Below are positions 526 through 29,552 of a DNA stretch of 32,458 bases, piece by piece. Numbering within the stretch: the stretch's first letter is position 1; every line of letters starts with the position of its first letter. The notes under the pieces are model-generated. The model did not search any database. It worked only from the letters and a program-made list of their open reading frames with translations, and had not been told where the DNA came from. Source of the stretch: a bacterium (GTDB lineage: Bacteria > Armatimonadota > UBA5829); NCBI GenBank assembly GCA_021373255.1, contig JAJFTD010000078.1, forward strand, positions 1-32,458, given 5' to 3'. The position numbers and the translations under genes are program-made.

Positions 526-1629
526 ATGCGATTGATCAGATTATTTATAATCTCTTTATTGATAACTGCTGCTCTGTGCGGATGTGGAAACAGGCAACAG
601 GAGACTGGCCCTCAGATTGATGGCAAGGAAATAGTTGGGAAAGCAGTTCCGCCTGAAAAACCAATTGCGCCTGGGCAGTTGTGCGGAGCGGAGACCAGTG
701 TTATAAACGTGGCGAAGAGGGTCGGTCCGGCGGTGGTATCCGTGGTCAATATGAGTTCGCCAGGATTCGGGCAGCCGGCGCGCAGGGCTGGGCTTGGGTC
801 GGGGTTCATAGTTAGCCAGAATGGGTTAATTGTGACTAATGAGCACGTGGTGGCGGGCGCCAGTCGGGTGCAGGTGGTGTTGATAGGTGAGAAGACTGTC
901 GATGCAAGGGTGCTCGGTGGCGACCCTCGGATAGATATCGCTATTATTAAAATAAACGGCCGAAACTTACCTACGGTGAGTATGGGCAATTCAGACGCGC
1001 TCCAGGTGGGCCAGCAGGCTATTGCTATAGGTAACCCATTCGGGTTCGAGCGCACGGTTACTACGGGAGTAGTGAGCGCATTGAACCGCGCCATCCCCGG
1101 CGCGGGGACATCCCTGCGTGACCTTATCCAAACCGATGCCTCCATCAATCCCGGCAACAGCGGAGGCCCATTGCTCGATAGTTGCGGGCGTGTGATAGGC
1201 GTGAACACTGCTGTGATCCAGACACCTGAGGGCGGCGGTGGCCTGGGGTTCGCTGTACCTATCAATACCGCAAAGCGAGCAATTAGCGATGTGCAAAAGA
1301 GCGGGCGTATAATCGTGCCATGGATCGGGATTGCCTACACGGAGATCACTCCAGACCTCGCCAGGTCATACAATCTACCTGTGAACTATGGCGTAGTGGT
1401 CGGCTCGGTATCACCGGATAGCCCTGCGGACAGAGCGGGAATACGTCGTGGGGACATCATAGTCGCGATCAATGGCAAGAAGCTGCAAAGCGCGGGACAA
1501 CTGCAGGAGTGGATACGGGAGGCCTCCGTTGGTGATAAGCTCGATCTGACAATCCTGAGAGATCACAAACGTCGCAAGATAACAGTCACCCTTGCGCAGA
1601 TGCCTGAGAGTGTGGCGGCAGGAAGATGA
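526..1629 (+). CDS. HtrA/DegP-like trypsin-type serine protease, lipoprotein, one PDZ domain
   Basis: Predicted envelope quality-control protease of the HtrA/Deg family, 367 aa. The N-terminus (residues 1-20) is a lipoprotein signal with Cys20 as the likely lipidated residue. The chymotrypsin-fold domain carries the triad His107 (TNEHVV), Asp137 (DPRIDIAI) and Ser212 (NPGNSGGPLL). One PDZ domain follows at about 265-355 (GVVVGSVSPDSPADRAGI). The length fits one-PDZ DegS/HhoA-type members. The ATG follows GAGGGG by about 8 nt. A GC-rich hairpin sits downstream at 1840-1860. Family assignment is secure; which Deg paralogue it is, and its substrates, cannot be told. Confidence 0.95.
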   Translation: MRLIRLFIISLLITAALCGCGNRQQETGPQIDGKEIVGKAVPPEKPIAPGQLCGAETSVINVAKRVGPAVVSVVNMSSPGFGQPARRAGLGSGFIVSQNGLIVTNEHVVAGASRVQVVLIGEKTVDARVLGGDPRIDIAIIKINGRNLPTVSMGNSDALQVGQQAIAIGNPFGFERTVTTGVVSALNRAIPGAGTSLRDLIQTDASINPGNSGGPLLDSCGRVIGVNTAVIQTPEGGGGLGFAVPINTAKRAISDVQKSGRIIVPWIGIAYTEITPDLARSYNLPVNYGVVVGSVSPDSPADRAGIRRGDIIVAINGKKLQSAGQLQEWIREASVGDKLDLTILRDHKRRKITVTLAQMPESVAAGR

Positions 1630-26668: not shown

Positions 26669-27766
26669 CTATTCACCAAACGTCCGGGCAACTTCTTTGA
26701 GCTGGGTAATAATCTTGATATTCTGAGGGCATTTTGGCTCACACTGGCCGCACTCTATGCACTCTGACGCGTTCTTCCCCTCCGGGAACCATTGGTTGCC
26801 GAAGTTCATATACTGGTGCTTAGCGTGATCCGTGAGGCCATAGAGCCGGTGCATATTCATTATTTTGAAGTTCTCAGGTATATTTACTTCATTTGGGCAC
26901 GGCATACAGTAGTTGCAACCCGTGCAGTAAAGCTCAGCGAGGCGCTTATTTTCAGCGAGCGCATCAGCAATTGCTTGTTTCTCATCCAAACTCAGAGCTT
27001 CGTCACGGTAGGCCACGGCAGTGTTCTCTTCCATTTGCTCCATAGTGCTCATTCCTGAGATGGCGCAAGTAACATTTTGGTTAGAAAGCACGAAACGAAG
27101 TGCGACCTCAGCGGAACTCTTCACCTCAGTTGGTATCATCTTGCGTATCTGCTCAGAAGGCGCTCCGAGCCTGCCTCCACCGACTGGCCCCATTACTATA
27201 ACGCCGAGCCCCTTTTCATGAGCATAAGCTATTACATCTTCATTCTTACGGTCCAGCAGGTTGTATTGAAGTGTTAACCCCTCGAATTCACCTGTATCCA
27301 GAAGTTTGATTATATTCTCAGGCGAGTCGTGAGTTGAGAAGCAGATGTGCTTGATAACTCCCTCATCCTTTGCCCGCTGGATCGTCTTCATCAGGCCCTC
27401 TCCAACAAGCACCCTGGTATAGAAATCCCAAGTGAGACCGTGGACGACCTGGTAGAAGTCTATATAATCAGTATCCAGCTTTTCTAGTGACTGGTTCAGT
27501 CGCCCCCACCAGGCATCGGGGCTGTTATCAGCGCCACCAGGATTCTTGGTGGACAGGTATATCTTTTCTCGCCAACCTTTGAGGGCTTTGCCGCATTTGT
27601 TCTCGCTATCACCATATACAAGGGCTGTATCGAGGTAGTTCACCCCAGCCTCGAATGAACGCTGCATGATTCTCACTGCTTCGTCATCGTCCTTCGGAAG
27701 ACGCATCGCGCCAAATCCGAGGGCCGAAAGTTTAATGCCCGTGTTTCCAAACTCTCTGTATTGCAC
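26669..27766 (-). CDS. Aldo/keto reductase with C-terminal ferredoxin-like 4Fe-4S domain
   Basis: 365 aa from GTG 27766 (MQYREFGNTGIKLSALGFGA), chosen for GGGAG upstream; TTG 27799 is an upstream alternative. The TIM barrel has the AKR tetrad Asp46, Tyr51, Lys74, His109 (YLDTALVYGDSE; YQVVHG). The C-terminal part (about 285-355) has two cysteine clusters, CTGCNYCMPCP and CIECGQCEPKCP, suited to two 4Fe-4S clusters. Enzymes of this architecture are predicted oxidoreductases; the substrate is unknown. Confidence 0.94.
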   Translation of the reverse strand: MQYREFGNTGIKLSALGFGAMRLPKDDDEAVRIMQRSFEAGVNYLDTALVYGDSENKCGKALKGWREKIYLSTKNPGGADNSPDAWWGRLNQSLEKLDTDYIDFYQVVHGLTWDFYTRVLVGEGLMKTIQRAKDEGVIKHICFSTHDSPENIIKLLDTGEFEGLTLQYNLLDRKNEDVIAYAHEKGLGVIVMGPVGGGRLGAPSEQIRKMIPTEVKSSAEVALRFVLSNQNVTCAISGMSTMEQMEENTAVAYRDEALSLDEKQAIADALAENKRLAELYCTGCNYCMPCPNEVNIPENFKIMNMHRLYGLTDHAKHQYMNFGNQWFPEGKNASECIECGQCEPKCPQNIKIITQLKEVARTFGE

Positions 27767-27895
27767 TTCAAATACTCCCTTCGCCAGCGCACTGCTCAAC
27801 CGCTGGGTTGTCCCATTTTACACCATCATACCGCAAGGTCAACCTATTATGAACTCTGTTACCCAATTATGTGAAATCTGGTTGTGCCGAATTGG

Positions 27896-27922
27896 GGAAC
27901 GCGTATTGATCTCGCACACGTA
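27896..27922 (+). promoter_or_regulatory. ECF-sigma-like promoter of sRNA candidate 1
   Basis: GGAAC (27896-27900), 18-bp spacer, CGTA (27919-27922): the classic ECF sigma factor pattern. The same pair precedes candidate 2. Confidence 0.5.
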
Positions 27923-27927
27923 ATTAA

Positions 27928-28006
27928 AATGAAGTTAGAAACTATCTTCTTCTCCTTTCACCTCCTTACCTAATACCCTGGCTGGATATCAGCCGGGGTT
28001 GTTTTT
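27928..28006 (+). ncRNA. Candidate small RNA 1 with anti-Shine-Dalgarno stretch
   Basis: About 78 nt from the predicted start to the end of the terminator. The 5' half ends in a single-stranded CU-rich tract (CTTCTTCTCCTTTCACCTCC, then TT) with the 16S-like sequence CACCTCCTTA. The 3' end is a 9-bp hairpin (27976-27984/27990-27998) and a T-run (28002-28006). No + strand gene follows, since the next gene is on the minus strand, so it is not a leader. A 14-codon frame from ATG 27929 exists but is not frame-conserved with unit 2. Confidence 0.55.
27976..28006 (+). terminator. Intrinsic terminator 1
   Basis: CCCTGGCTG/CAGCCGGGG with one T-G wobble, 5-nt loop, then TTGTTTTT. Confidence 0.8.
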
Positions 28007-28055
28007 CAACCAGCGGATTAGTTGCTCAAAAAAATAGTATCTATTTATTAATCCG

Positions 28056-28081
28056 GGAACGTACGAAATAGCGTATGCGTA
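28056..28081 (+). promoter_or_regulatory. ECF-sigma-like promoter of sRNA candidate 2
   Basis: GGAAC (28056-28060), 17-bp spacer, CGTA (28078-28081), followed by the same AATAAAATGA-type stretch as unit 1. Confidence 0.5.
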
Positions 28082-28087
28082 GAATAA

Positions 28088-28173
28088 AATGACAAAGATA
28101 CTGGTTATCTTTTCTCCTTTCTCCTCCTTTCCTTCCGACCCCGGCTTGCAGGCAAGCTGGGGTTGTTTTTTTT
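28088..28173 (+). ncRNA. Candidate small RNA 2 with anti-Shine-Dalgarno stretch
   Basis: About 86 nt, a diverged copy of candidate 1: CU-rich tract CTTTTCTCCTTTCTCCTCCT then TTCC, followed by a strong hairpin and eight Ts. Alignment to unit 1 needs a 2-nt indel before the CU tract, which argues against a shared coding frame. Confidence 0.55.
28139..28173 (+). terminator. Intrinsic terminator 2
   Basis: CCCCGGCTTGC/GCAAGCTGGGG with a G-T wobble, then TTGTTTTTTTT. It is 8 nt from the stop of the minus-strand pyrimidine-nucleoside phosphorylase gene. Confidence 0.85.
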
Positions 28174-28181
28174 GTACATAG

Positions 28182-29483
28182 TTAATGGATGACCTCGTAA
28201 ATCAGGGGCGGAACCTGGGCAAGCTCCCCGATTTGGTAAGCCTCCAGAATGGCGGATGAGGCTGACGGTATAGTCTGTGGGTCGTTTGCATAGATCAGAG
28301 CAAGTACCTCGCCAACTTCGACTGCATCCCCCAGCTTCTTCATAACAACCAAACCTACCGCCGGATCGATGGTATCCTCTTTCCTCTCACGTCCGGCTCC
28401 GAGGATCGACGCAGCAGTGCCGATTCGAGCACAATCAATCGCTTTGACATATCCCGATGTGGCACTCTTGACCTCGTGCACAATCGCAGCCTGCAGAAGA
28501 ATATTAGGATCATCGATCACACGAGGATCACCATCTTGAGCGTTGATAATCTCAATGAACTTGGCAAGTGCGCTGCCGGATGCCAGGGCTGATATAGATG
28601 CATTTCTCGCATCTTCCAAGTCTGTGTACTGTCCAGCTATGTATAACATTAATGCTGATAATTCTACACACAGCTCACGTAAGTCCGATGGTCCACCACC
28701 CTTGAGAGTCTCTATGGCCTCAGCAGCCTCCAATGCGTTGCCCACGGCACGACCCAGGGGCTGGTTCATGTCAGTTATCGCCGCCGAGACCTTGCGGCCG
28801 AATGCAGTGCCGATAACAATCATAGTTTGGGCAAGTTCACGGGCTTGCTCAATGCTGTGCACAAACGCACCGCTACCGACTTTTACATCCAGCAAGATGA
28901 CATCGCTGCCACACGCTATCTTTTTGCTCATCACACTGGCGGCTATCAATGGAATACTCTCCACGGTGGCAGTGACATCTCGTAAGGCATATATCTTCTT
29001 GTCCGCCGGCACAATACCATGCGTTTGGCCGGTTATTGCTGCCCCGATTCGGCTCACTTGAGATATGAAGCGGTCCACATCCAGCGCAGTATTGAAGCCG
29101 GGAATGGACTCCAACTTGTCCAGGGTGCCGCCGGTAAACCCAAGGCCCCTGCCGGACATCTTCGCTACCTTGAGCCCGCATGCAGCGAGCATAGGTACGA
29201 CAACCAAGGTGGTCTTATCGCCCACCCCTCCAGTGCTGTGTTTGTCTACCTTTGTACCAGTTATTGAGTCAAGGTTTAACACAGTCCCACTCTCGACCAT
29301 AGCCTGAGTCAGCGCAGAGGTCTCAGCAAAGGAAAGTCCTCGTATATAAACAGCCATTAGGAAAGCCGACATCTGGTAATCCGGCACTTCACCCCAAGCA
29401 TAACCTGACACTATGCCTTTGATCTCTTTGGATGATAGCTCCTTGCCGTCGCGCTTTGCGGCGATTATGTCCGGTATTCGCAT
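28182..29483 (-). CDS. pdp: Pyrimidine-nucleoside phosphorylase
   Basis: Cleaves pyrimidine (deoxy)nucleosides with phosphate in nucleoside salvage; 433 aa. The family signature SGRGLGFTGGTLDKLESIPGF is cleanly present, with the phosphate/substrate segment KHSTGGVGDKTTLVVVP, Lys-rich KVGSGAF and the C-terminal domain (DPAVGLVVMKKLGDAVEVGE). The start is ATG 29483 with AGGAG 8 nt upstream; GTG 29492 overlaps the spacer. Whether it prefers uridine or thymidine cannot be told, so deoA is an alternative name. Confidence 0.95.
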   Translation of the reverse strand: MRIPDIIAAKRDGKELSSKEIKGIVSGYAWGEVPDYQMSAFLMAVYIRGLSFAETSALTQAMVESGTVLNLDSITGTKVDKHSTGGVGDKTTLVVVPMLAACGLKVAKMSGRGLGFTGGTLDKLESIPGFNTALDVDRFISQVSRIGAAITGQTHGIVPADKKIYALRDVTATVESIPLIAASVMSKKIACGSDVILLDVKVGSGAFVHSIEQARELAQTMIVIGTAFGRKVSAAITDMNQPLGRAVGNALEAAEAIETLKGGGPSDLRELCVELSALMLYIAGQYTDLEDARNASISALASGSALAKFIEIINAQDGDPRVIDDPNILLQAAIVHEVKSATSGYVKAIDCARIGTAASILGAGRERKEDTIDPAVGLVVMKKLGDAVEVGEVLALIYANDPQTIPSASSAILEAYQIGELAQVPPLIYEVIH

Positions 29484-29552
29484 TGATCGCACTCCTCTTG
29501 GGAAGGTATTTTAATGGTATATGCTGCATAATTCGTTGGGAGATAATATAAG

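What the first reader, a model, noticed from the sequence alone, without database searches (positions are those of the whole stretch)
27886..28173. Two tandem sibling small RNAs with ECF-type promoters and anti-Shine-Dalgarno tracts
Two units about 160 bp apart share, in order, GGAAC, 17-18 bp, CGTA, an AAAATGA stretch, a CU-rich tract containing CTCCTTTC and CCTCCTT, a GC hairpin with the same outer CCC(C/T)GGCT...GGGG, and TTGTTTTT. Upstream and downstream bases are diverged, and the 2-nt indel rules out a conserved reading frame. The CU-rich core equals the 3' end of 16S rRNA and would pair with ribosome binding sites. GGAAC-N17-CGT promoters belong to ECF sigma factors. Together this suggests paralogous trans-acting sRNAs of a stress regulon. 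Some alphaproteobacterial stress sRNAs use similar CCUCC motifs, but I know of no described family matching this one.
Basis: partly seen in the sequence, partly recalled or inferred. Interest (0 to 1): 0.85.

Follow-up and report, generated by a model that had tools for sequence, protein, structure and literature searches.

The report
Envelope-stress small RNAs in Armatimonadota
Next to each other in this uncultured bacterium sit two genes for short regulatory RNAs that are probably switched on by a cell-envelope stress sigma factor and block ribosome binding sites; they belong to an undescribed RNA family found across a whole class of a phylum in which I found no described regulatory small RNA.

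Summary
Both units lie in one intergenic gap, with the flanking genes on the other strand. Each is an ECF promoter (GGAAC-N17/18-CGTA), a short RNA with a 5' hairpin, a CU-rich core, and an intrinsic terminator. The host belongs to Armatimonadota, same genus as MAG UBA5829. The pair is conserved in the genus. Relatives occur through the family, order and class. A covariance model built without the promoter finds new members that carry the promoter at the right place. Rfam has no match. The likely cognate sigma factor was found: an ECF sigma/zinc-finger anti-sigma/HtrA operon, the only one of 30 ECF loci examined in this genome with the same promoter; 28 of 30 homologues in related genomes have it too. 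In one sister family the same RNA body has sigma-54 promoters instead. The core matches the 16S rRNA tail, so blocking of Shine-Dalgarno sites is the best mechanism. A porin-like gene is the best predicted target in the genus, but shuffled cores do almost as well genome-wide, so targets are unproven. It works like FoxI/FoxJ and LhrC and is not a detected member of any known family. No transcript data were available.

The parts
27896..27922 (+). ECF-type promoter of unit 1 (GGAAC-N18-CGTA)
   Evidence: sequence; same element at the same place in relatives and before the ECF sigma gene and its homologues
27929..28006 (+). sRNA unit 1 (type A), predicted transcript; 5' end estimated 7-8 nt after CGTA
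   Evidence: covariance-model match 27928-28008, E 3.5e-12 (a training sequence); fold z = -3.0
27931..27950 (+). weak 5' hairpin of unit 1 (GAAG...CUUC)
   Evidence: minimum-energy fold; inferred
27951..27967 (+). CU-rich core of unit 1 (TCTCCTTTCACCTCCTT), predicted to pair with ribosome binding sites
   Evidence: matches 16S tail GGATCACCTCCTTTCTA of the class
27975..28006 (+). intrinsic terminator of unit 1
   Evidence: stem pairs covary in relatives
28056..28081 (+). ECF-type promoter of unit 2 (GGAAC-N17-CGTA)
28088..28173 (+). sRNA unit 2 (type B), predicted transcript
   Evidence: covariance-model match 28090-28176, E 4.4e-16 (training sequence); fold z = -3.3; 84-92% identical in G001, G003 and G004
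28093..28114 (+). 5' hairpin of unit 2 (AAAGAUA...UAUCUUU)
28113..28129 (+). CU-rich core of unit 2 (TCTCCTTTCTCCTCCTT)
28136..28173 (+). intrinsic terminator of unit 2
26669..27799 (-). flanking gene, aldo/keto reductase with ferredoxin domain (starts 5' of unit 1, opposite strand)
28182..29492 (-). flanking gene, pyrimidine-nucleoside (thymidine) phosphorylase; its stop lies 9 nt past unit 2 on the opposite strand

Best explanation
Two paralogous, independently transcribed, terminated small RNAs of about 80-90 nt form part of the non-coding arm of an envelope-stress ECF sigma factor (a SigE/RseA/HtrA-like operon at G000:C103). When the anti-sigma releases the sigma factor, it transcribes its own operon and these sRNAs from GGAAC-N17/18-CGTA promoters. 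The single-stranded CU core, an anti-Shine-Dalgarno sequence held between a 5' hairpin and the terminator, pairs with the ribosome binding sites of mRNAs, probably with Hfq help, and lowers translation of abundant envelope and secreted proteins. Shown by sequence: anatomy, conservation, the shared promoter, the sigma/anti-sigma/HtrA operon, and the presence of an hfq gene. Inferred: transcription, sigma specificity, SD pairing, target identity, Hfq use, and the direction of regulation.
For: Conserved units in genus, family and order. A model built without the promoter finds four new members at E < 1e-6 (G006, G010, G011, G004A), all with the promoter at the right place. Promoter-plus-core pattern: 84 hits against 45 for the reversed control in 28 genomes, including two further CU-rich units in this genome. 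The ECF sigma gene has GGGAAC-N17-CGTA 18 nt before its start codon; 1 of 30 examined ECF loci in the genome has it, and 28 of 30 homologues have it, against a background of 0.009 per strand-kb. The operon is sigma, zf-HC2 anti-sigma, trypsin plus two PDZ domains. Hfq is present. The core matches the 16S tail. Terminator pairs covary. In five species of the genus a porin-like gene has a start region in the best 0.2-1.1% for pairing.
Against: There are no transcript data. Secreted and membrane-like genes pair better than others (p = 0.0012), but shuffled CU cores do as well in 11 of 40 trials, so the enrichment is mostly composition. The porin-like target is not a notable match outside the genus. 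A few genomes have the ECF homologue but no model match (G009, G022-G024).
Confidence: 0.7

Rival explanations
1. The RNAs are 16S-tail mimics that act as a general translation brake, occupying Shine-Dalgarno sites indiscriminately or binding a ribosomal factor, without a specific target set.
For: Type A cores contain the 16S 3' end (UCACCUCCUUUC in G002, G015, G016, G018). Shuffled CU cores predict targets almost as well as the real one.
Against: The core holds a second conserved block (CUCCUUU) that the 16S tail lacks; the type A / type B difference and the separate 5' hairpins are each conserved within the genus.
Confidence: 0.18
2. The CU tract is a binding site for an RNA-binding protein (a sponge) instead of an antisense seed.
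For: Short, unstructured, multi-copy CU tracts would suit a sponge; no target is proven.
Against: The core equals the anti-Shine-Dalgarno sequence, a simpler reason for its conservation; no CU-binding regulator was identified.
Confidence: 0.08
3. The units encode short peptides (an ATG begins MTKILVIF... in unit 2).
For: Unit 2 has a 30-codon frame from ATG.
Against: The ATG becomes GTG or CTG or is shifted by an extra base in relatives; the frame runs through the terminator; no ribosome binding site precedes it.
Confidence: 0.02
4. The units are cis elements (leaders, attenuators or antisense tails) of the neighbouring genes.
For: They lie close to the thymidine phosphorylase gene in most of the family.
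Against: Both neighbours are on the opposite strand and do not overlap the predicted RNAs. In G015, G016 and G018 the unit lies beside other genes, and other paralogues lie elsewhere in the genome.
Confidence: 0.02

Closest known systems
FoxI and FoxJ of Fusobacterium nucleatum (PMC11005410)
   Same: sigma-E dependent sRNAs that share the promoter type of the sigma gene; conserved C-rich seed; repress an abundant porin (FomA) and other envelope proteins.
   Different: No sequence relation found; here the seed is a doubled CU anti-SD core, the units are tandem paralogues, and targets are only predicted.
LhrC1-5 of Listeria monocytogenes (PMC4132741)
   Same: Multicopy sRNAs of 111-114 nt induced by envelope stress; redundant CU-rich motifs that block the Shine-Dalgarno site of a surface protein mRNA.
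   Different: LhrC is controlled by the LisRK two-component system, not an ECF factor, and has CU motifs in two loops and a linker; no Rfam match here.
RybB/MicA/MicL of enterobacteria (own knowledge)
   Same: Non-coding arm of an envelope-stress sigma-E; repress outer membrane proteins.
   Different: Different seed sequences and single copies; no homology found.
CcsR/cuckoo RNAs of Alphaproteobacteria (CCUCCUCCC hairpins, PMC3927594; promoter and host-gene context from own knowledge)
   Same: Repeated anti-SD motifs in stress-related RNAs.
   Different: There the motif sits in hairpin loops downstream of a DUF1127 gene in one transcript; here it is unpaired and each unit has its own promoter and terminator.

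Membership tests
ECF (sigma-E-like) dependent sRNA | promoter of the same -35/-10 type as the sigma gene's own promoter | tested here: met
ECF (sigma-E-like) dependent sRNA | sigma factor encoded with an anti-sigma factor and envelope protease | tested here: met
   zf-HC2 anti-sigma and HtrA-like protease
ECF (sigma-E-like) dependent sRNA | transcription depends on the sigma factor | not testable with these tools
   needs RNA data or in vitro transcription
trans-acting anti-SD sRNA | independent promoter and intrinsic terminator with an unpaired seed complementary to Shine-Dalgarno sequences | tested here: met
trans-acting anti-SD sRNA | defined mRNA targets with conserved pairing | tested here: inconclusive
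   porin-like gene in the genus only; shuffled cores nearly as good
LhrC and every other Rfam 15 family | covariance-model score at or above the gathering threshold | tested here: not met
   no hit in the window; only sub-threshold chance-level hits in the region; relatives' loci match only tRNA
CcsR/cuckoo RNAs | CCUCCUCCC motif in hairpin loops | tested here: not met
   core is CUCCUUUC(A/U)CCUCCUU and unpaired in most predicted folds

The most novel reading that the evidence does not exclude
A class-wide family of 16S-tail-mimic RNAs in which one RNA body has been moved between sigma factors (ECF in three families, sigma-54 in another, sigma-70 in one species), so that different stresses feed one general brake on translation initiation.
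Probability: 0.2. Interest if true: 0.8.

Novelty: new variant of a known kind. Interest (0 to 1): 0.62.

Why it matters
I found no described regulatory sRNA in Armatimonadota (search of open papers only), and no Rfam family matches. Together with FoxI/FoxJ in Fusobacteriota, a sigma-E-like factor with CU-rich sRNAs in another deep phylum would support the idea that an RNA arm of envelope stress has arisen repeatedly or is very old. The promoter change from ECF to sigma-54 on the same RNA body would be a clear case of an sRNA rewired between regulons.

Tried and rejected
Peptide-coding reading: no conserved start or frame. Known RNA family: no Rfam hit. Cis element of the neighbours: wrong strand, and the neighbourhood changes. 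Plasmid origin: no match. Genome-wide target prediction by pairing energy: secreted genes are enriched, but shuffled cores give nearly the same. Exact double Shine-Dalgarno search: mostly the sRNA genes' own reverse strand, too few mRNAs to use. Of the three non-Armatimonadota hits of the genome-contig scan, L158 and L164 show no terminator-like context, and L157 looks like the reverse strand of a ribosome binding site. The first aligner output put the core out of register; a trimmed alignment was used instead. An early scan missed the promoter upstream of four ECF homologues because of its motif filter; corrected.

Full report
Observation. GGAAC at 27896 and 28056 is followed after 18 and 17 nt by CGTA, then a CU-rich core (27951-27967 and 28113-28129), then a GC-rich hairpin with a T run. 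Both predicted RNAs fold better than shuffled sequence (z = -3.0 and -3.3); the fold is a weak 5' hairpin, an unpaired core and the terminator. The gap lies between an aldo/keto reductase gene and a thymidine phosphorylase gene, both on the other strand, so the RNAs are not leaders or tails of these genes.

Conservation. BLASTN finds the units in all four other species of the genus and more weakly in the family and order. Fetched loci show 15 complete units in ten genomes including this one. Two types, A (unit 1) and B (unit 2), sit side by side in G000 and G002-G004; only type B was found in G001. In G002-G004, G007 and G013 the unit also lies beside what reads as the end of the thymidine phosphorylase gene, and in G015, G016 and G018 it lies beside what reads as the end of a 2-oxoacid dehydrogenase E2 gene (read by eye from the sequence; not tested by a family search). 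In the alignment of 13 units 18 columns are invariant, and most of them are the core TCTCCTTTC-N-CCTCCT. The terminator stem keeps pairing through changes on both sides in 6 of 9 pairs.

Independent test with a covariance model. The model was built from the RNA part only, without promoters. Among 28 genomes of the class, 21 have matches at E up to 0.01; not all of the weak ones need be real. Four matches at E < 1e-6 were not in the training set (G006, G010, G011, and the type A unit of G004), and all four have GGAAC-N-CGTA at the expected place. Weaker matches led to tandem arrays in another family (G019, G025) with GGAAC-N-CGTC promoters and to units in G021 and G005. A promoter-plus-core pattern gives 84 hits against 45 for the reversed control in the class. 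It reveals further types, two of them in this genome: G000:C105 (79805) and G000:C170 (177). The C105 type lies near tRNA arrays in both G000 and G015.

Organism. A scan of named genomes with the full pattern returns mostly Armatimonadota MAGs, including UBA5829 itself; its 12,086-base contig matches in length the G002 contig that carries the units, so the window's genus is that of UBA5829.

Cognate sigma factor. GGGAAC-N16/17-CGTA occurs 15 times in this genome, 5 times when reversed. One site lies 18 nt before the start codon of a 197-aa ECF sigma gene. The gene is followed by a zf-HC2 anti-sigma factor and an HtrA-like protease with a trypsin domain and two PDZ domains; the closest NCBIfam models are SigE and SigW, both below cut-off. 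Among 30 ECF loci examined here only this one has the CGTA promoter. Of 30 homologues in related genomes (this one included) 28 have GGAAC-N17/18-CGTA upstream or close to the predicted start (for 24 of them, for four that the first scan missed); the two without it belong to genus g5, whose sigma genes are distant (46% identity) and which has no sRNA match. The background rate is 0.009 per strand-kb.

Promoter exchange. In G020 and G026, of another family, tandem units with the same kind of core and terminator have sigma-54 promoters (TTGGCACGAATCTTGCA, exact to the consensus in two units of G020), and both genomes encode sigma-54. The body AGAAACATCTTTTTCTCCTT is identical over 20 nt between a G026 unit and the ECF-type unit of G015. 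In G017 the unit has a sigma-70 promoter, TTGACA-N17-TATAAT. These promoters are consensus matches and not proof of use.

Mechanism. The class's 16S 3' end reads GGATCACCTCCTTTCTA (from G019 and G025; the 16S gene of this genome was not found by the pattern). The core contains that anti-Shine-Dalgarno sequence plus a second CUCCUUU block. Hfq is encoded. Pairing of the core with 571 start regions from a 719-kb sample of two species favours secreted or membrane-like genes (p = 0.0012). Shuffled CU cores reach the same p in 11 of 40 trials, so this is not specific. The strongest start region in the sample belongs to a porin-like secreted protein (Porin_4, E 2.4e-5, below cut-off). Its orthologues in all five species of the genus rank in the best 0.2-1.1%, but those in the rest of the family do not. 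I therefore hold SD blocking of envelope-protein mRNAs as the most likely mechanism (about 0.6) and the ECF-dependent sRNA identity as near certain for a sequence-only case (about 0.9).

Comparison. FoxI/FoxJ (PMC11005410) and LhrC (PMC4132741) work in the way proposed here. Rfam finds no member of any known family, and the defining loop motif of the alphaproteobacterial CCUCCUCCC RNAs (PMC3927594) is absent.

Noticed in passing
L146 1039-1500; L147 1015-1300: Tandem CU-core/terminator sRNA units with sigma-54 type promoters in two genomes of a sister family.
   Followed up: partly
L145 850-1750; L155 1200-1550; L271 480-850: Tandem arrays of two to four units with GGAAC-N-CGTC promoters and the core CUUCCCACCCUCCUUUCUCU in another family.
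   Followed up: partly
L263 1006; L265 550; L266 489; L267 498: Another CU-core type with a GCUUGC hairpin under the same ECF promoter; near tRNA arrays in L263 and L265.
   Followed up: partly
window 28166-28177 and relatives: GTAC follows the terminator T run in most units (TTTTTTGTAC) across genera; reason unknown.
   Followed up: no
G008, G012, G014 (genus g5): These genomes lack a close ECF homologue, sRNA matches and the porin-like gene; sigma-54 is also missing in the two checked (G008, G012). Possibly one event of envelope reduction.
   Followed up: no
L037 1549-1582: A core without ECF promoter or terminator near a contig end in G018; possibly a decayed copy.
   Followed up: no
window 526-1629: A second HtrA-like protease with a lipoprotein-like start in the window; its start region pairs well with the sRNA core.
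   Followed up: no
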